NCBI GenBank assembly: GCA_003695915.1 | Contig: RFGF01000022.1 | Span: 1 to 64,000 of the forward strand | Direction: 5' to 3' | Source: Nitrospirota bacterium | Lineage (GTDB): Bacteria; Nitrospirota; Nitrospiria; Nitrospirales; UBA8639 | Length of the DNA: 64,000 bases | Part shown: positions 3,567-22,921 of the stretch, piece after piece | How the letters are laid out: the number at the start of each line of letters is the position of its first letter | How positions within the stretch are numbered: position 1 is the stretch's first letter | Program-made: the position numbers and the translations under genes | The notes under the pieces: model-generated | Databases searched by the model: none | What the model saw: only the letters and a program-made list of their open reading frames with translations | Told to the model about the DNA's origin: nothing

Positions 3567-4895
3567 ATGCGTTCGGATTCGATATGTGCGCCACAGTTCT
3601 TCATCGAATCGAGGATTCGTACACCCACCTCCCATCACCACGATGCTGATGCCCTTGGCCTCGTGAAAAAGCGGATTCCCCTTCACCGACTCAAACCGGG
3701 TATGTACATAGCCAGCCTCGACGTCTCTTGGTTTAAAACACCGTTTTTACGACACAAATGGCGAATAACCCGCGAAGACGAGATACGATTGCTTGGGCAA
3801 TACGGCATCCAAGAAGTCACCATCGATACCGACAAAGGCTTCGACGTCGAAGAAACCGAATCTCCGACAGAGGATGCGCAAGCGGGCTCTGTTCACGATC
3901 GACCGGCCAGCGGCTCATCCGAAGCACCGCCGCCCTCCGCCACCCCAGTGCTGACCCCGGAAACGCTCGAGATGGCCCGCGCCATCCGGTCCCGTGCCAT
4001 CGCTGCGTTGGACATGCTGTTTCACCAAGTCGAAACCGGACATTCCATCCATACGAATCATGTTCGCCGCGTCGTCAGCACGTTGCTCGAAGGGCTCTTC
4101 GAATATCAGCACGCCATGCTGTCCTTGATTCAAATGCGGCGGTTCGATCATCAGTTATCCACCCATGTCGTCGATACATCCGTGCTCGCGCTGGCATTGG
4201 GACAGGTTCACGCGCTCGACCCGACGCAGCTCAAAACACTCGGCGTCGCAGCCCTGCTCCATGACGTCGGACAGCTCCGTTTGCCCCGCAACCTTCTCCG
4301 CAAGCGGAGCCCCTACACGGAGGAAGAACGACGCCTGATGGCATTACATCCCGAGATCGGTGTTGCCATCACCAATCAATTCTCGGATTTTCCCGACGAG
4401 GCCAAACAGGCCATTTTGGAGCACCATGAACGGCTCAACGGAACAGGCTATCCGCGTCGCATCACGCAGCCGCATCGATTGAGTCAGCTGTTGGCCATTG
4501 CCGATACGTATGACGCCCTCATCAGCGGGCGATGCACGCACCTGGCCATTCCCCCGGCCCATGCCCTCGGTGAGTTGTATCGATCCGCCATCCAAGGAGA
4601 ATTCGACGCCACCTTGGTCCAACAACTGATCCGATTCCTCGGCGTGTATCCGATCGGATCGCTCGTGGAACTCAATACCGGCGAGCGCGGAGTGGTCGTA
4701 TGGGTTCATCCTCACCAACGGCTCAAACCCACCGTCAAATTGATCACCGATGCCGAGGGGAAACCCTATGCCACTCCTGTGATCGTTGACCTCTCCACGC
4801 CACGGAGCGACGAGCCGACTCGAACGATTACCCGAGCATTAGATCCCGACAAAGAACACATCGATGTGCTCAAACTCTTGAAGCATGTCTGGTGA
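3567..4895 (+). CDS. HD-GYP domain cyclic-di-GMP phosphodiesterase
   Basis: The protein has an N-terminal DUF3391-like segment (KKRIPLHRLKPGMYI...), common in HD-GYP proteins, then an Ala/Pro-rich linker and an HD-GYP catalytic domain over about residues 185-370. Seen motifs are LLHDVGQLRLP (HD), ALHPEIG, LEHHERLNGTGYP (HHE plus the GYP signature) and AIADTYDALISGR. HD-GYP enzymes hydrolyse c-di-GMP to pGpG/GMP. All canonical ligands appear intact, so an active enzyme is expected. There is no transmembrane segment or REC domain, so the input signal is unclear. The first 32 residues look atypical and GTG at 3663 begins the DUF3391 part directly; neither start has a good ribosome site, so the N-terminus is uncertain. 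The neighbour is a sensor kinase 80 bases downstream. The riboswitch-controlled pilus locus is a plausible target of this c-di-GMP turnover. Confidence 0.9.
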   Translation: MRSDSICAPQFFIESRIRTPTSHHHDADALGLVKKRIPLHRLKPGMYIASLDVSWFKTPFLRHKWRITREDEIRLLGQYGIQEVTIDTDKGFDVEETESPTEDAQAGSVHDRPASGSSEAPPPSATPVLTPETLEMARAIRSRAIAALDMLFHQVETGHSIHTNHVRRVVSTLLEGLFEYQHAMLSLIQMRRFDHQLSTHVVDTSVLALALGQVHALDPTQLKTLGVAALLHDVGQLRLPRNLLRKRSPYTEEERRLMALHPEIGVAITNQFSDFPDEAKQAILEHHERLNGTGYPRRITQPHRLSQLLAIADTYDALISGRCTHLAIPPAHALGELYRSAIQGEFDATLVQQLIRFLGVYPIGSLVELNTGERGVVVWVHPHQRLKPTVKLITDAEGKPYATPVIVDLSTPRSDEPTRTITRALDPDKEHIDVLKLLKHVW

Positions 4896-4976
4896 CGGCG
4901 TCACGAGAGCCGTGAATGACAACCATTCCAGTCTGGATGCCGCAGGCAGATGCCAGCTTGATTGTCACGATCGACA

Positions 4977-7658
4977 ATGAATGAACGAGTCACCCCAGAA
5001 TCGGAACCGATGGAACAGATGCTCGCGAGCGAACGGGCGTTTCGACGCACCCTGCTCGACTCGCTCCGGATTGGCGTCTGCCAAGTCGACACACAGGGAC
5101 AGATCGTATCATTGAATCTCGAAGCAGTCCGCATTTTCGGTCGAACCGAAGATACGTGTCGCGGACAGTCGCTACACGCCTTGATCGGTTGTGCCATCGG
5201 TGACGACTCTGCCCAAGAACGCTGTCCCATTCCTTGGGTCGTGCGTACCGGTCGATCGCTCTGGTCTCCGAACGCATTGATTCGTCGAAGCACCGGTGAA
5301 ACGTGTTGGGTCGAATTTCATTGTTGCTTTCTTCCCGATCCTTCTCGCCCTGGGGCCTTGTTTCTCTTTCGCGACCTTTCCTCCCAACTGCAATTGATCG
5401 GCGATCATCAACACCTCGCTTCGATGCCTGAAGCCAGTCCGACTCCCATCATTGAAGTCGATGCCGAAGGCGATATCGTCTATGCCAACCCTGCCACGAT
5501 CCGTTTGTTGGACGCTGTCGGCTATAGCGAATCGGGGCTTCCCAAGATTTTGCCGCCCACGATTGCAGATATCGCAAAAGATTGTCTCGCCCACCAAACC
5601 GACTCGTCTGGCCTTTCCGTCATCGTCGAAGGGATCCATATCGAATGGACGTTTACGCCGGTCATCGAGAAAGGATTGATTCGCGGGTTCGGGCTGGATC
5701 TCACTAAGCACATGCGTGAACGCGAAACGCTGATCGAAGTTCAATCGCGCTTTCACTCGCTCGTCAACTCTGCCCATGAGGGCATCGTATCCGCGGACCT
5801 TCACGGAAGCATCAGGACGTGGAATCCGGCCGCCGAGTCGATGTTCGGCTATAGCGCCAACGAGGTTCTTGGGCAGCCCATTACGATCTTGCTGGACGAG
5901 CCATTCCGCGAGATCTATCGGGATCGGCTGGAACGGTTCAGCTTCGGAGAAGAGACCTCACTCCCGCTCGTCGTAGAGGTTGTCGGCAAACGCAAAGACG
6001 GCATGACTTTTCCTCTCGAGCTGACCTTGACGAGCTGGAAAGTGGGGCTCGACACCCACTATGGGTGTTTTCTCCGCGATTTGACCGATCGGAAACGAGA
6101 CGAGCATTCGGTGGTTGCCGAGAAGGAACACTTGGCCACGGCGGTGCATTCGTTGGCCGATGCCCTCATTGCCACCGACACCGAAGGACGGATCACGCTG
6201 TTTAATCCGATGGCGGAACGCCTCACAGGCTGGTCTCAAGCCGAGGCGTTGCACCGTCCTTTACAGGAGATTGTTCGGATCTCGCCCATCACGCCTCCCA
6301 GCAATGGCGAACATCCCTTTGCGCATATGTTGACACTGCGGGTCATGACCACGACGGATATTCCCTCCATGCTGCTCGCTAAGGACGGCACCAAGCGAAT
6401 CGTTACGTATCGGGAAGCCCCCATCCGCACTTATCAAGGGCAATTGCTGGGTAGCGTCTTGGTCATCCGCGATTGGACGGATCAACAACGCACGATGGAT
6501 GAACTGAATCGGCTCAATCGGCTCAATTCGCTCAGTGTGTTGGCTGGAGGCATCGCCCACGACTTCAACAATCTCCTCACGACGATTCTAGGGAATTTAT
6601 TCGTCGCCAAGCTCCGGATGGTTCCCCAGGATCCGATCAGTCAATGTCTGGTGCATGCGGAAGAAGCGTGCTTGCGAGCGAAGGAGCTCACCCACCAATT
6701 GCTTACCTTTGCGAAAGGTCGCACTCCCATGAAGACACGAATTTCGACGGGCGAGTTCGTGCGACGCAATACCGTCTTTGCTTTATCCGGCTCATCCACG
6801 AGCTGCGAGTTTCAGTTGGCAGCGGATCTGTGGGACATCGAAGGGGATGAGGATCAACTCAAGCAGGTGATCCACAATCTCGTGATCAACGCAAGACAGG
6901 CGATGCCGCAAGAAGGCTTGATCACCATTCGGGGAGAAAACGTCATCGTCGATGAGGCCAATCATGCGCAATTTCCTACGCTGCTGCCCGGACACTATGT
7001 CAAACTCGAATTCGAGGACCGCGGACCAGGAATTCCCGAGGAAGATCTTCCCAAAGTCTTCGATCCCTATTTCACGACCAAACCGGATGCAAGCGGATTA
7101 GGATTGGCGACTGCCTATTCGATCGTGCAGCGTCACGGAGGATGCTTGACAGTTCGATCACAACTCGGCGTGGGCACCACGTTTTCCCTCTATATCCCGG
7201 CTGCAACGACACCGCCTGAACGCCCGTCGGAGATTCCACCGTCGCTTCCCCAGCGAAGCGGACGGATTTTAGTCATGGACGATGAGTACAGTATCCGGAC
7301 TATGATGCAAGATGCCCTCGCACAACTCGGGTACGATGTCACCTGCGTTCAACACGGTCAGGAAGCCATCACCGTGTATACCCAAGCGAAACGGGAAGGC
7401 CGTCCGTTCACCGCGGTCATCTTGGACCTCACGGTCCCCGGCGCCATGGGAGGGAAAGATGCCATCCAGCATCTTCGTGCCGTGGATCCACAGGTGAAGG
7501 CGATCGTCACCAGCGGGTACGCCGATCACGACGTGGTCGAACAGTATCGTCACTATGGATTCGATGCCGTGCTGGTCAAGCCGTATCAAGTCACCGAGTT
7601 GTATCGAATCCTTGACGTCTTGCTTGCTTCGGAATCACCCCAGCAACGATCACCGTGA
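4977..7658 (+). CDS. hybrid PAS sensor histidine kinase / response regulator
   Basis: 893 residues from ATG 4977; the frame also reaches TTG 4962. Four PAS-like domains lie in series at about residues 18-125, 150-245, 255-370 and 385-500. A HisKA dimerisation domain follows with phospho-acceptor His near residue 528 (GGIAHDFNNLLTTILGN). The HATPase_c domain carries an N box (NLVINARQAMP), G1 (EDRGPGIPEEDL), an F box (FDPYFTTK) and G2 (GLGLATAYSIV). The C-terminal receiver domain starts ILVMDDEYSIRTMM and has the acceptor Asp near 817 (VILDLTVPG) and the conserved Lys (LVKPY). No transmembrane helix is visible, so this is a cytoplasmic hybrid kinase of the NtrB-like HDFNNLL class. Its location after an HD-GYP gene suggests shared control, but the signal and the downstream regulator are unknown. 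Confidence 0.92.
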   Translation: MNERVTPESEPMEQMLASERAFRRTLLDSLRIGVCQVDTQGQIVSLNLEAVRIFGRTEDTCRGQSLHALIGCAIGDDSAQERCPIPWVVRTGRSLWSPNALIRRSTGETCWVEFHCCFLPDPSRPGALFLFRDLSSQLQLIGDHQHLASMPEASPTPIIEVDAEGDIVYANPATIRLLDAVGYSESGLPKILPPTIADIAKDCLAHQTDSSGLSVIVEGIHIEWTFTPVIEKGLIRGFGLDLTKHMRERETLIEVQSRFHSLVNSAHEGIVSADLHGSIRTWNPAAESMFGYSANEVLGQPITILLDEPFREIYRDRLERFSFGEETSLPLVVEVVGKRKDGMTFPLELTLTSWKVGLDTHYGCFLRDLTDRKRDEHSVVAEKEHLATAVHSLADALIATDTEGRITLFNPMAERLTGWSQAEALHRPLQEIVRISPITPPSNGEHPFAHMLTLRVMTTTDIPSMLLAKDGTKRIVTYREAPIRTYQGQLLGSVLVIRDWTDQQRTMDELNRLNRLNSLSVLAGGIAHDFNNLLTTILGNLFVAKLRMVPQDPISQCLVHAEEACLRAKELTHQLLTFAKGRTPMKTRISTGEFVRRNTVFALSGSSTSCEFQLAADLWDIEGDEDQLKQVIHNLVINARQAMPQEGLITIRGENVIVDEANHAQFPTLLPGHYVKLEFEDRGPGIPEEDLPKVFDPYFTTKPDASGLGLATAYSIVQRHGGCLTVRSQLGVGTTFSLYIPAATTPPERPSEIPPSLPQRSGRILVMDDEYSIRTMMQDALAQLGYDVTCVQHGQEAITVYTQAKREGRPFTAVILDLTVPGAMGGKDAIQHLRAVDPQVKAIVTSGYADHDVVEQYRHYGFDAVLVKPYQVTELYRILDVLLASESPQQRSP

Positions 7659-7672
7659 CAGAAGCGAGGAAA

Positions 7673-8662
7673 CTATAAACAGGAAGGAGTCCGCTGCTCG
7701 CGCGCACGCCGCTGCAAGAGAGGAAGACGAGCCAAGCGCTGCTGAACTAATTCTAAATTTTCTTGGGCCCGTTCATAAAAGCTCGCTTGGCTCTGAACGG
7801 CTTGTGTAAAGCATCGCCAGGCCCTCACAGGCTGGTCCGATTCCAGAAAGATTACCCCGACGTTGTTGTAGGCTTTCGCCGTCCCGACACCCTGCTCAAA
7901 CGCTTCGAATGCATCTCGATATCGCGCCAGTTTGGCATAGGTCAAACCCAGATTGTTCCAGATTTTGACATCAGCACGCCCTGTGCGAATGGCTTGCTGA
8001 AAGAGCGGGATCGCTCGTTTGTATTGTCCGCTGAGCACATAGGCCATCCCCAGATTATTCAAAATAGCCGGATCATCGGGATGCAGTGCAAGCGCTTTGA
8101 CATAATGCCGAATCGCTTCTTCGTGCGAATGCTGTCGGTCCGCAATGATTCCGAGATAATTTTCCGCATCCCACCGTGAAGGATCAAAAGCCAAAGCTTG
8201 TTCAAACTCCAATTTCGCTTCGGCATCTTTCTGCAGACGAAGCAGTGCCCGCCCCATCCCGATATATGCAGGCACGTATTCAAACTCATAATCCAGGATA
8301 CGGTGAAAATGCTCGTAGGCTTTGTCGGCTTTTCCATGCTGCAGGTACAATTGGGCGACTTTATATCGCGTCGGAATATGCGCAGGTTCCAACTCCAAGG
8401 CTTTTTCATATTGGACCGCTGCGAGCACGATGTGACCTTGGCGCGCGTGCGCGTCGCCAAATTGCTCGTACTCATCCCGCGTAAACTCTTTGACCGTCAA
8501 AACGCGTTCCTCATCCAACGGCAATCCAGCTTTTTGTCGATCGAAAACCGGCTGGTAATGTTCGTCCGGGGTCATGAATGTCGGCCATGGGGTGGCGGCA
8601 CATCCACCGAGACCGATCAGACCCACGACTGATCCCAACACGACTGACATGAACCTCCTCAT
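7673..8662 (-). CDS. tadD: TPR lipoprotein, TadD-like pilus assembly protein
   Basis: This is the last gene of the Flp/Tad locus. I chose ATG 8662 because AAGGAG lies eight bases upstream; the frame extends to ATG 8680. The N-terminus is a lipoprotein signal ending GLGGC, with Cys near residue 21. The mature protein has about six consecutive TPR units, for example RYKVAQLYLQHGKADKAYEH, NYLGIIADRQHSHEEAIRHY, NNLGMAYVLSGQYKRAIPLF and NNLGLTYAKLARYRDAFEAF. TadD-type TPR lipoproteins are needed for assembly or localisation of the Tad secretin in other bacteria. Assignment as TadD comes from position directly after tadC and the lipoprotein-TPR architecture, since TPR sequence alone does not prove orthology. 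The gene converges on the sensor kinase with 14 bases between stops. Confidence 0.82.
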   Translation of the reverse strand: MRRFMSVVLGSVVGLIGLGGCAATPWPTFMTPDEHYQPVFDRQKAGLPLDEERVLTVKEFTRDEYEQFGDAHARQGHIVLAAVQYEKALELEPAHIPTRYKVAQLYLQHGKADKAYEHFHRILDYEFEYVPAYIGMGRALLRLQKDAEAKLEFEQALAFDPSRWDAENYLGIIADRQHSHEEAIRHYVKALALHPDDPAILNNLGMAYVLSGQYKRAIPLFQQAIRTGRADVKIWNNLGLTYAKLARYRDAFEAFEQGVGTAKAYNNVGVIFLESDQPVRAWRCFTQAVQSQASFYERAQENLELVQQRLARLPLLQRRAREQRTPSCL

Positions 8663-20392: not shown

Positions 20393-20460
20393 GGTCTTGC
20401 TCCTTTCTTCATTCATAACATGTCGATGTCAGTGGATCACTCGTTCCTCATCAGCTTCCG

Positions 20461-20637
20461 TTAACTCGCTGCGGCACTCATCGAGTTGGCGATCGTGTTG
20501 AACGTGTTGCTGACCACCGGGCCCAAGGTCGTCACGGCGGCAATGATGACGCCGGCGATCAAGGCCGCCAACAACCCGTATTCCAGAGCCGTGGCACCTT
20601 CCTCTTCTCGAATAAATCGGTAAACTGCTGCGGTCAT
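20461..20637 (-). CDS. flp: Flp type IVb pilin, copy 3
   Basis: A 58-residue prepilin from ATG 20637 (GGAGTAACG upstream). The predicted cleavage lies after residue 14 (EEEG) and before ATALEYGLLAALIAGVI. One notable change is Gly-Pro in TTLGPVVSN where the other copies have Gly-Gln. A longer open frame to 20904 exists, but it reads out of frame through copy 4 and is not a gene. Copies 3 and 4 sit in a 245-bp tandem repeat. Confidence 0.93.
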   Translation of the reverse strand: MTAAVYRFIREEEGATALEYGLLAALIAGVIIAAVTTLGPVVSNTFNTIANSMSAAAS

Positions 20638-20705
20638 GGCGTTACTCCTTTCCTTGATATTCATCATGCTTACTGTACGTTTCACTCGTTCCTCATCAGC
20701 TTCCG

Positions 20706-20882
20706 TTAACTCGCTGCGGCACTCATCGAGTTGGCGATCGTGTTGAACGTGTTGCTGACCACCTGGCCCAAGGTCGTCACGGCGGTGATAATCACGCCAG
20801 CGATCAAGGCCGCCAACAACCCGTATTCCAATGCCGTCGCCCCTTCCTCCTCCTGCCAAAACGACTTCATGCAGATCGTCAT
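20706..20882 (-). CDS. flp: Flp type IVb pilin, copy 4 (promoter-proximal)
   Basis: A 58-residue prepilin, the first gene behind the riboswitch leader. The leader MTICMKSFWQEEEG differs from the other copies; the mature part ATALEYGLLAALIAGVIITA and tail SNTFNTIANSMSAAAS are shared. ATG 20882 is preceded by GGAAAGGAG at ideal distance, the strongest ribosome site of the four, so this may be the major pilin. Translation or transcription here is the likely output of the c-di-GMP aptamer about 490 bases upstream. Confidence 0.94.
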   Translation of the reverse strand: MTICMKSFWQEEEGATALEYGLLAALIAGVIITAVTTLGQVVSNTFNTIANSMSAAAS

Positions 20883-21368
20883 ATGCAAACTCCTTTCCAG
20901 GCACAAATAGGTGTAAAGATCAGCCGCGATGGTGTGCCCATTGATTGACCAATCGCAACTGAGCGATGGGCTCCCTCCTGCTGAACGAGTTGAATGTTTC
21001 ACGCACATCATGTAGAACAAGCGCCCTTGCCGCACACTCGAGAGGCTCGGAATAAGAGCGCAATGGTTGTTCCAAAAAGACGCTTTCGAACGAGGCGCTG
21101 ATGCGCTCGTGTCCAATGACGACGCTGTCTGGTTCGACACCCTCGAGGGGGAGGAAAGGGCGCAGAAACGCGGCACGGCTTATCGGGAGGAATCCTAGGC
21201 GGTTTGAGTCGTGCCCGACACACAGGCCGAAGACTGGAACATGGTTGGGGTGATCCCAATCCCGGTGAACGGGATGCGGAAGGCAAGATCGTCAGTGACC
21301 CAGAGCTTGACAACATGGAGTTCGTCCCTTTCTTTCCCCTCCGGAACTCCACTCCGCCAAGATCTCTG
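20883..21368 (-). other. long untranslated leader of the flp transcript
   Basis: About 490 bases between the riboswitch aptamer and the first pilin, with no believable gene; the open frames here have unnatural composition. A small hairpin (ATCCCG / CGGGAT, 21259-21275) is present. GTCAGTGA at 21291-21298 is complementary to an 8-base segment of the aptamer at 21402-21409, a candidate for switching. A second inverted repeat (GGAGTTC / GAACTCC) lies within about 21316-21350. No U-tract terminator follows these, so a translational or processing mechanism is more likely than simple attenuation. Confidence 0.5.
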
Positions 21369-21450
21369 TTCCCGTCCTTCGGTAGCCCGGCTATCAGCAG
21401 CTCACTGACCCGTGGCTTTGCGTCCCCGCTTCACAACGGGTTTGCCTTTT
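21369..21450 (-). ncRNA. cyclic-di-GMP-I (GEMM) riboswitch aptamer
   Basis: The minus-strand RNA reads GGCAAACC, then a hairpin CCCGTT-GTGA-AGCGGG whose loop is a GNRA tetraloop, then GGGACGCAAAGCC, then a second stem-loop closing with ATAGCCGGGCTACCG. These are the conserved elements of the c-di-GMP-I class in order and at the right spacing: the GGCAAACC and GACGCAAAGCC blocks that form the ligand pocket, the GNRA tetraloop, and a receptor helix ending in a CGGG-UACCG segment as in the Vibrio Vc2 RNA. It lies upstream of the four flp genes in the same orientation. It should bind c-di-GMP and control the pilin transcript. Confidence rests on motif recall, not a covariance search. Confidence 0.88.
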
Positions 21451-21703
21451 TCGGGAGGGAGTTCGATGGGTATTGTTTTTCTGCCCGTGTGTATCGGAAT
21501 TTCCGCCGAATACTTGATGGCCTTCTTCGCACCTGCCAATCAAAGCCCGGGCTTCACCGCATGCCTGAGGCCACATCTGTTTTCGAAAACGCTCGTCTAT
21601 CGAGGTTTCTTGTATTCTCAAGGTTTGAAGCAATCGTCCGACCTGTTGTTCAGACCGTAACCGGTTGCAGCTACATTTGTCTCTGCTGTCGGGGCAACAG
21701 CCG

Positions 21704-22921
21704 ATGCTCCTTGAACACCCACAGACTAGCCTTTCCTTCGGAACCCATCGTTCTCATGATCACGCAGATCCAGAACTCTCGATTGTTATCCCTTGCTTGA
21801 ACGAAGCCCAAACGCTCGCACAGTGCCTGCGAAAGGCCAATCTGGCTATCGCGACGCACCGTCTCCATGCCGAGATCATTGTCGTCGATAACGGCAGCCA
21901 GGATGGCTCACCGGCCATTGCCCAGGCCTGCGGCGCTCGCGTCATCCATGTCAGTGAACGAGGATATGGAGCCGCCTTACAGGCAGGAATCCAGGAAGCA
22001 ACCGGACGATTCGTGATTATGGGAGACGCCGACGATAGCTATGACTTCTCTGCTATCTTCCCATTTCTCGAAAAACTCCGTGCAGGCTACGATTTGGTCA
22101 TGGGGTGCCGGTTTCCCCATGCTGGGGGAACCATTATGCCAGGGGCTATGCCGTGGCTTCACCGATGGATTGGAAATCCGATTCTCAGCGCAATCGGACG
22201 CTTGTTTTTTCGTTCTCCTGTCCAGGATTTTCATTGCGGTCTTCGTGCCTTTCGACGAGATGCGATTCTAGCCCTTGACCTTCGCGCACCCGGGATGGAA
22301 TTTGCTTCTGAGATGGTGATCAAAGCCACCTTGCAGGGGCTCAACATCACCGAGATTCCCATCACCTTGCACAAGGACGGACGTCATCGTCGTTCTCACC
22401 TCCGAACATGGCGCGATGGTTGGCGTCATCTCCGATTCATGCTTCTGTATTCACCTCGCTGGCTGTTCTTGGTTCCGGGCATGATATTATTTATCATGGG
22501 TATGGGTGTGGGGATATGGCTGCTTTTTGGACCGAGAACGATTCGGGGCGTGACATTCGACACCAATACGTTATTGGTGGCGGCCATGACGATGCTCATT
22601 GGGTTCAATCTGATCACCTTTGCCATCTTTTCGAAAGCATACGGCATCGCTACGCGGTTGTTGCCGGAGGATCCCCTTTTCAGGGACATTCTCAATCGGT
22701 GTTCATTGGAAAAGGGTATTATTTGCGGCCTCACGACGCTCGCCTTAGGAGCGGGGTTGCTCTTGTTGGGCATATGGCAATGGAGCCTGCAAGGATTCGG
22801 TCCCCTGTCGTATCCCGACAGTCTCCGGTTAGTGATCCCCGGAACGACCATCCTGACACTCGGGGTTGAAATTGTCTTTTCGAGTTTTTTGTTGAGCCTC
22901 CTTCAGGTATCACCCCGCTGA
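21704..22921 (+). CDS. membrane-associated family 2 glycosyltransferase (DPM synthase-like)
   Basis: 405 residues from ATG 21704; the frame extends to a TTG at 21665. The GT-A catalytic domain occupies about residues 25-250: LSIVIPCLNEAQTLAQCL, IIVVDNGSQDGSP, and the metal-binding GDADDSYD near 108, with DFHCGLRAFRRD and GMEFASEMVIKA matching dolichol/polyprenyl-phosphate hexose synthases. The C-terminal 150 residues hold four hydrophobic segments (VPGMILFIMGMGVGIWLLF and others), a common membrane anchor in this family. It probably charges a polyprenyl phosphate with a hexose that a GT-C enzyme then uses. It is divergent from the flp leader and followed within about 50 bases by the methyltransferase. 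Confidence 0.88.
   Translation: MLLEHPQTSLSFGTHRSHDHADPELSIVIPCLNEAQTLAQCLRKANLAIATHRLHAEIIVVDNGSQDGSPAIAQACGARVIHVSERGYGAALQAGIQEATGRFVIMGDADDSYDFSAIFPFLEKLRAGYDLVMGCRFPHAGGTIMPGAMPWLHRWIGNPILSAIGRLFFRSPVQDFHCGLRAFRRDAILALDLRAPGMEFASEMVIKATLQGLNITEIPITLHKDGRHRRSHLRTWRDGWRHLRFMLLYSPRWLFLVPGMILFIMGMGVGIWLLFGPRTIRGVTFDTNTLLVAAMTMLIGFNLITFAIFSKAYGIATRLLPEDPLFRDILNRCSLEKGIICGLTTLALGAGLLLLGIWQWSLQGFGPLSYPDSLRLVIPGTTILTLGVEIVFSSFLLSLLQVSPR

What the first reader, a model, noticed from the sequence alone, without database searches (positions are those of the whole stretch)
21369..21450. c-di-GMP-I riboswitch ahead of the Flp pilin array
The minus-strand RNA has GGCAAACC, a GNRA-capped hairpin, GGGACGCAAAGCC and a second hairpin ending in CCGGGCTACCG, in the order and spacing of GEMM-I aptamers. 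It faces four tandem flp genes and the whole Tad locus. RNA-level c-di-GMP control of an Flp/Tad pilus in this type of organism would tie surface attachment directly to the second messenger.
Basis: partly seen in the sequence, partly recalled or inferred. Interest (0 to 1): 0.88.

Follow-up and report, generated by a model that had tools for sequence, protein, structure and literature searches.

The report
c-di-GMP riboswitch heading Tad-pilus operon
A genuine RNA sensor for the bacterial signal molecule c-di-GMP sits at the start of the operon that builds an adhesive (Flp/Tad) pilus in a Nitrospirales bacterium; its nearest downstream target appears to be the start of a small, previously unlisted gene in front of the pilins, and the promoter looks like the type used for flagella genes.

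Summary
Window 21377-21455 (minus strand) matches Rfam c-di-GMP-I-GGC at 75.8 bits (cut-off 59) and the parent c-di-GMP-I model at 73.4 (cut-off 35). It carries the canonical ligand-contact set (G20, A47, C92). Four flp genes and a Tad locus lie downstream. The link is conserved: 26 of 29 family genomes with a cut-off-level flp have the aptamer 110-680 nt upstream; two of the other three are cut by contig ends.
(1) A sigma28/FliA-type promoter lies about 35 nt upstream; its pattern occurs once in the 3.7-Mb genome. (2) The aptamer is not directly ahead of flp: its expression platform covers the start site of a 102-codon leader ORF whose WxxEHxxxTxK motif is conserved family-wide. (3) A conserved pseudoknot abuts the flp Shine-Dalgarno. 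(4) The same promoter-plus-aptamer pair heads an fn3/Ig-like secreted protein.
Best mechanism (inferred): c-di-GMP closes the leader-ORF start site (OFF switch) and so lowers pilus expression in cells leaving the motile state. The aptamer class is known; the promoter/riboswitch/leader-ORF arrangement is a new variant. Ligand binding, transcript and direction are untested.

The parts
21491..21517 (-). sigma28/FliA-type promoter TCAAGTAT-N11-TCCGATAC; expected transcription start about 7 nt downstream (~21484)
   Evidence: 12/16 match to TAAAGTTT-N11-GCCGATAA, 1/200 shuffles as good; CAAGTNT-N11/12-CCGATA occurs once in the whole genome, here; same box upstream of the aptamer in essentially all 26 relatives
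21452..21464 (-). alpha strand GAACUCCCUCCCG: pairs either with beta or, through its 3' half, with the 3' flank of the aptamer (extended P1)
   Evidence: GAACUC invariant in 9/9 distal leaders; folding
21377..21455 (-). c-di-GMP-I aptamer (best model RF03167; contact residues G20, A47, C92)
21370..21381 (-). 3' partner of extended P1 (CGAAGGACGGGA)
   Evidence: folding; coordinates
21356..21367 (-). 5' strand of outer stem H1 of the start-site-sequestering hairpin
21344..21350 (-). beta strand GGAGUUC: pairs with alpha or with gamma
21325..21331 (-). Shine-Dalgarno-like AAAGGGA of the leader ORF
   Evidence: sequence
21317..21323 (-). gamma strand GAACUCC, immediately before the leader-ORF AUG
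21302..21313 (-). 3' strand of stem H1, covering the first codons of the leader ORF
21008..21316 (-). leader ORF, 102 aa, lineage-specific, no Pfam match
   Evidence: homologous ORFs in relatives; Pfam none
21083..21115 (-). conserved motif of the leader protein (WTRAHQRLVRK; family pattern WxxEHxxxTxK)
   Evidence: found only in flp leaders among 228 loci
21143..21220 (-). C-over-G segment, rut-like (candidate Rho loading region), inside the leader ORF
   Evidence: C-G 0.19 per 78 nt; 0.1% of sense-strand windows of the Tad genes reach it
20897..20962 (-). pseudoknot abutting the flp Shine-Dalgarno (S1 UCAGUUGCGAU/AUCGCGGCUGA; S2 UGGGCACA/UGUGCCUG)
   Evidence: score z 3.8, 0/100 shuffles; alternative pairings kept across relatives; no Rfam family
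20706..20882 (-). flp1 pilin
   Evidence: PF04964 56 bits
20461..20637 (-). flp2 pilin
   Evidence: PF04964 52.7 bits
20216..20392 (-). flp3 pilin
   Evidence: PF04964 52.8 bits
19938..20120 (-). flp4 pilin
   Evidence: PF04964 50.1 bits
9691..19686 (-). Tad assembly genes: TadE x2, TadG-like VWA protein, prepilin peptidase, RcpC/CpaB, secretin, TadZ-like ATPase, TadA, TadB/C-like protein
   Evidence: Pfam

Best explanation
This is the 5' leader of the flp/Tad operon of a Nitrospirales bacterium that encodes flagella. A FliA (sigma28)-type promoter starts the transcript just upstream of a c-di-GMP-I riboswitch. When c-di-GMP binds, the extended P1 helix traps the alpha strand. The released beta strand then pairs with gamma and closes the translation start site of the leader ORF (OFF switch). 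Without ligand, alpha can hold beta and leave the start site open. Translation of the leader ORF is coupled to expression of flp and the Tad genes, most likely by shielding a C-rich (rut-like) stretch from Rho. Motile, FliA-active, low-c-di-GMP cells would therefore make Tad pili, and rising c-di-GMP would shut the operon down. Shown here by sequence: aptamer, promoter motif, leader ORF and its conservation, mutually exclusive pairings, operon. Inferred: ligand, OFF direction, and coupling of the leader ORF to flp.
For: Aptamer well above the cut-offs of two models with the contact residues kept. Aptamer-flp linkage in 26 genomes. Promoter motif with fixed spacing to the aptamer; a FliA gene at 267.7 bits in a FliR-FlhB-FlhA-FlhF-FlhG-FliA cluster. 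The start-site hairpin is predicted in 9/9 distal leaders, z -1.5 to -3.6. With the aptamer formed, the beta-gamma fold beats the alpha-beta fold by 6-14 kcal/mol in 9/9; the start site is more open in the alpha-beta state in 9/9. Leader-protein motif kept at amino-acid level; third-position excess of substitutions (977 against 684/673; control flat). A C>G bubble in all nine long leaders. Precedents: riboswitch-controlled translated leader needed for the downstream gene in M. tuberculosis ppe2 (PMC11260477); FliA-driven TAD operon in Bdellovibrio (PMC5430801).
Against: In G000 and four relatives the fold without aptamer constraints already favours the closed start site, so switching relies on co-transcriptional folding. 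The window's leader protein is the most diverged one (WTRAHQRLVRK), and its Shine-Dalgarno (AAAGGGA) is weak. The C>G bubble is only a compositional hint. In relatives with a proximal aptamer, the element next to flp does not show the same clear switch. No transcript or binding data exist.
Confidence: 0.45

Rival explanations
1. Same riboswitch and operon, but c-di-GMP acts as an ON switch for Tad, as for the pilin riboswitch of C. difficile: either the start site opens on binding, or translation of the leader ORF is inhibitory and c-di-GMP relieves it.
For: The class II riboswitch ahead of the C. difficile pilin gene, and Vc1, act positively (PMC4744006). The metE uORF described in PMC11260477 suppresses its downstream gene. 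The second target in this genome is a secreted fn3/Ig-like protein, plausibly wanted at high c-di-GMP.
Against: The alpha strand is shared by extended P1 and the alpha-beta helix, so ligand binding should favour the closed start site (9/9).
Confidence: 0.25
2. The leader ORF encodes a small regulatory protein that binds the flp-leader pseudoknot (or another target) and sets flp translation; c-di-GMP controls synthesis of that regulator.
For: Protein-level conservation of WxxEHxxxTxK, one copy per locus and only at flp leaders. A conserved SD-abutting pseudoknot is kept even where the proximal aptamer is absent.
Against: The rest of the protein is hardly conserved. In the relatives with only the proximal aptamer the ORF can run through the aptamer, which fits a leader peptide better than a protein. 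No family match.
Confidence: 0.2
3. The aptamer is a decaying remnant: the proximal aptamer that directly adjoined flp was lost in this genus, and the distal one no longer controls flp.
For: Relatives G016, G019 and G027 have two aptamers, whereas G000 and the g8 genomes have only the distal one.
Against: The G000 copy has the third-highest score of more than 130 matches in the family (75.8 bits), with contact residues, platform strands and promoter all kept. That is not decay.
Confidence: 0.07

Closest known systems
c-di-GMP-I (GEMM-I) riboswitches, Rfam RF01051 / RF03167
   Same: Aptamer sequence, fold and contact residues; cis position ahead of surface-appendage genes
   Different: Scores best with the GGC model but has A, not the GGC consensus G, at position 47. 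The platform acts on a leader ORF, with the pilin about 495 nt further on
GEMM-I ahead of flp in Bacillota MAGs (loci L104, L116, L149, L160, L166)
   Same: c-di-GMP-I aptamer 260-320 nt upstream of an Flp pilin
   Different: Different leader with terminator-like hairpins (read by eye) and no leader ORF with the motif; no sigma28 box was looked for there
FliA-controlled TAD operon and merRNA of Bdellovibrio bacteriovorus (PMC5430801, PMC3627812)
   Same: Tad operon under a FliA promoter (TTAAG-N16-CCGATA); an abundant c-di-GMP-riboswitch RNA in the same motile phase
   Different: In Bdellovibrio the riboswitch RNA is a separate non-coding RNA; here promoter, riboswitch and Tad operon form one unit
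M. tuberculosis ppe2 B12 riboswitch with translated leader (PMC11260477)
   Same: A riboswitch controls a translated leader ORF, and leader translation conditions the downstream gene
   Different: Other ligand and coupling mainly by termination-reinitiation; here the leader ORF ends about 125 nt before flp1
C. difficile pilin-gene c-di-GMP-II riboswitch (Bordeleau et al. 2015, cited in PMC4744006)
   Same: c-di-GMP riboswitch controlling a type IV pilin
   Different: Class II aptamer, type IV rather than Flp/Tad pilus, ON switch

Membership tests
c-di-GMP-I riboswitch (RF01051 clan) | Covariance-model score above the curated cut-off | tested here: met
   73.4 bits vs 35 (RF01051); 75.8 vs 59 (RF03167)
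c-di-GMP-I riboswitch (RF01051 clan) | P1, P2 with GNRA loop, P3, all pairs kept | tested here: met
   cmscan alignment without a broken pair; P2 loop GUGA
c-di-GMP-I riboswitch (RF01051 clan) | Ligand-contact residues G20, A47, C92 (Vc2 numbering) | tested here: met
   Read from the alignment; the Vc1 study mutated what it calls predicted contact residues G12, A39, C104 (PMC4744006); the Vc2 numbering is from general knowledge
c-di-GMP-I riboswitch (RF01051 clan) | Binds c-di-GMP | not testable with these tools
   needs in-line probing or calorimetry
c-di-GMP-I-GGC subfamily (RF03167) | Best-scoring model | tested here: met
   RF03167 kept over clan members by cmscan
c-di-GMP-I-GGC subfamily (RF03167) | G at position 47 as in the model consensus (GACGCGAAG); that the letters GGC name positions 20/47/92 is my inference | tested here: not met
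   the window has A (GACGCAAAG); so I file it in the parent c-di-GMP-I class, not as GGC
FliA/sigma28 promoter | -35/-10 consensus and spacing | tested here: met
   12/16 with N11; conserved position in relatives; unique in genome
FliA/sigma28 promoter | Transcription by FliA | not testable with these tools
   fliA present; no expression data
Rho-controlled leader ORF | C-rich, G-poor rut region exposed when the ORF is not translated | tested here: inconclusive
   C>G bubble in 9/9 leaders; composition only
Flp/Tad pilus locus | Flp pilins with TadA, TadB/C, RcpC, secretin, prepilin peptidase and TadE genes | tested here: met

The most novel reading that the evidence does not exclude
A lineage-wide regulon in which one sigma28-type promoter plus a c-di-GMP-I riboswitch forms an AND-NOT (or AND) gate over the Tad pilus and an fn3/Ig-like secreted protein. 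At the pilus locus the riboswitch controls a dedicated small protein that in turn acts on a new SD-abutting pseudoknot of the flp mRNA.
Probability: 0.2. Interest if true: 0.75.

Novelty: new variant of a known kind. Interest (0 to 1): 0.55.

Why it matters
In the open-access papers searched I found no report of a riboswitch ahead of an Flp/Tad locus, nor of c-di-GMP riboswitch control of attachment in Nitrospirales, the order that holds the Nitrospira nitrite oxidisers. If the reading holds, flagellar sigma factor and c-di-GMP meet on one transcript. That would make the motile-to-attached decision in this group testable with a single reporter construct, and it adds a case of a riboswitch working through a leader ORF.

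Tried and rejected
Intrinsic terminator or sigma70 promoter in 20400-21800: none found, so a terminator platform is not supported. A second, degenerate proximal aptamer in the window: none down to E = 1. Direct aptamer-to-flp Shine-Dalgarno switching in relatives with a proximal aptamer: folding did not separate the two states. Nitrospiraceae relatives: their aptamers showed no linkage to flp in the matches listed, which were truncated for the aptamer search. Known family for the leader protein: no Pfam hit. A second genome-wide sigma28 pattern (TAAAGNNT-N11/12-CCGATA) had no match, so the genome-wide FliA regulon of this species is undefined. Literature on the GGC subfamily's ligand: source paper not held.

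Full report
WHAT WAS CLAIMED AND WHAT IS THERE. A scan of the whole window against Rfam 15 finds exactly one RNA family match: c-di-GMP-I-GGC (RF03167) at 21377-21455 on the minus strand, 75.8 bits against a cut-off of 59, E 3.5e-16, full length, no broken pair (again). The parent family RF01051 gives 73.4 bits against 35. The other criterion (no transcript) cannot be tested here.

SUBTYPE. In the alignment the three ligand-contacting positions read G (Vc2 G20), A (A47) and C (C92). The GGC model's consensus has G at position 47. The letters GGC most likely name these three positions (my inference; the source paper is not held). The window therefore scores best with the GGC model but has the canonical c-di-GMP set, and I file it in the parent class. 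G at position 20 argues against cGAMP specificity (general knowledge of GEMM-Ib variants).

ORGANISM. So the window is from the order Nitrospirales. Lineage IV/UBA8639 (PMC12342949) is a guess, and nitrite oxidation by this genome was not checked. The genome encodes FliR, FlhB, FlhA, FlhF, FlhG and FliA in one cluster.

CONSERVATION OF THE LINK. In 49 family genomes, 33 have the aptamer and 32 have Flp at the loose thresholds used; the three genera without Flp (g2, g3, g5) lack the aptamer too. Of 29 genomes with Flp over the Pfam cut-off, 26 have an aptamer on the same strand 110-680 nt upstream. In G025 and G040 the flp lies within 85 nt of a contig end; G031 has one weak Flp and no linked aptamer. 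There are two positions: proximal (about 115 nt before the Flp domain; g6, g10) and distal (about 515-675 nt; G000 and g8). G016, G019 and G027 have both. In the rest of the order the listed aptamers are not beside flp (the aptamer list was truncated). Five Bacillota loci also have a c-di-GMP-I aptamer 260-320 nt before an Flp gene, so the pairing is not unique to this lineage.

PROMOTER. Upstream of the aptamer lies TCAAGTAT-N11-TCCGATAC (21517-21491), a FliA/sigma28-type box. CAAGTNT-N11/12-CCGATA occurs once in 3.7 Mb, here. Relatives show [TG]CAAGTTT-N11/12-xCCGATAA or -GTCGATAA at a fixed distance (end at -105 in g10, -26 to -50 in distal types), usually beating 199-200 of 200 shuffles; G027 and G045 are weaker (12 and 6 of 200 shuffles as good), and G030, G038 and G048 have a spacer-10 form further upstream. 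The Bdellovibrio TAD operon is driven by FliA from a very similar box (PMC5430801, PMC3627812).

LEADER ORF. Between the aptamer and flp1 the window has a 102-codon ORF (21316-21008) starting 60 nt after the aptamer. Eight other distal-type genomes have an ORF starting 56-62 nt after the aptamer. Most share a motif WxxEHxxxTxK that also occurs upstream of the proximal aptamer in g6 and g10. In 228 loci it is found only in flp leaders. Codon usage at the motif varies while the amino acids stay, and in the 14 proximal-type ORFs compared substitutions favour third positions (977 vs 684 and 673; an upstream control is flat: 1930, 1839, 1816). G022 lacks the motif; G000's version is diverged. No Pfam match. 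In g10 the frame continues through the aptamer. I do not read that as selected, since in G019 it stops at the aptamer's first bases.

EXPRESSION PLATFORM. In all nine distal leaders GAACUC (alpha) abuts the aptamer, GAGUUC (beta) follows about 26-40 nt after it, and a third segment before the AUG (gamma or the Shine-Dalgarno) can pair with beta. In the window alpha is 21464-21456, beta 21350-21344, gamma 21323-21317. The hairpin containing beta-gamma plus an outer stem covering the first codons is predicted in 9/9 (z -1.5 to -3.6; G000 -2.2), and the outer stem has quite different sequences in different genera. The 3' half of alpha also extends P1. With the aptamer formed, closing the start site is 6-14 kcal/mol better than alpha-beta in 9/9; the start site is more open in the alpha-beta state in 9/9. 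In four genomes alpha-beta is the minimum without constraints; in the others, including G000, the two states lie within a few kcal/mol. These numbers depend on the stretch folded. I therefore favour a translational OFF switch acting on the leader ORF. This is a prediction.

FROM LEADER ORF TO FLP. No intrinsic terminator is present. All nine long leaders have a C-over-G stretch (a level reached by 0-2% of windows of the Tad genes), mostly in the first 200 nt after the aptamer. Untranslated, such a stretch could load Rho. Alternatively the leader protein acts on a pseudoknot that abuts the flp Shine-Dalgarno: S1 and S2 are formed by different sequences in different genera (S2: GGGCACA/UGUGCCC, GGGCAUA/UAUGCCC, CGAGCA/UGCUCG, CGGGC/GCCCG), G000 z 3.8, most individual relatives weaker (z 0.9-3.0), not recovered in G024. 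It matches no Rfam family.

REGULON. The second G000 copy (C86) precedes an fn3/Ig-like secreted protein. In most of the relatives examined the non-flp aptamers also precede an fn3-like protein with a TAAAGxxT-N11-xCCGATAA-type box about 100 nt upstream (the fn3-like call for relatives is by sequence similarity seen by eye).

KNOWN OR NEW. The aptamer class is known. FliA control of Tad is known in Bdellovibrio. A riboswitch acting through a translated leader is known in M. tuberculosis (PMC11260477). The open-access searches gave no report of a riboswitch ahead of Tad/Flp, or of one in Nitrospirales. That is absence in this library only. The combination on one transcript is a new variant.

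CONFIDENCE. Aptamer of the c-di-GMP-I class: about 0.97. Part of the flp/Tad transcript: about 0.9. sigma28-type promoter: about 0.85. Leader ORF translated: about 0.75. OFF direction: about 0.6. Rho coupling: about 0.35.

Noticed in passing
G000:C86:70203-70284 (locus L036 about 8204-8285): Second c-di-GMP-I aptamer of the genome, ahead of an fn3/Big-domain secreted protein, with a FliA-like box (TCAAGTTT-N11-GCCGAAGG) 78 nt upstream; the same pairing recurs in relatives.
   Followed up: partly
window 20897-20962 (-): Pseudoknot abutting the flp1 Shine-Dalgarno, conserved in most relatives with exchanged base pairs and without an Rfam family.
   Followed up: partly
window 3567-4895 (+) and 4962-7658 (+): HD-GYP-type protein (DUF3391 + HD_5), a likely c-di-GMP phosphodiesterase, and a PAS/sensor-kinase-like protein lie next to the Tad locus.
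   Followed up: partly
L104, L116, L149, L160, L166: Bacillota MAGs with a c-di-GMP-I aptamer 260-320 nt ahead of Flp pilin genes, with terminator-like hairpins between.
   Followed up: partly
L009 (G041:C35:39929-40006): A further aptamer about 1 kb beyond the flp-linked one, 18 nt ahead of a TadE/TadG-like pilus protein ORF.
   Followed up: no
G000:C100:37329-37985: A second FliA/WhiG-type sigma factor (198 bits, just over the cut-off) outside the flagellar cluster; which of the two reads the flp promoter is open.
   Followed up: no
g10 relatives, e.g. L077: The leader ORF starts within about 6-8 nt after the -10 box, so it may be translated from a leaderless mRNA, and its frame runs through the proximal aptamer.
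   Followed up: no
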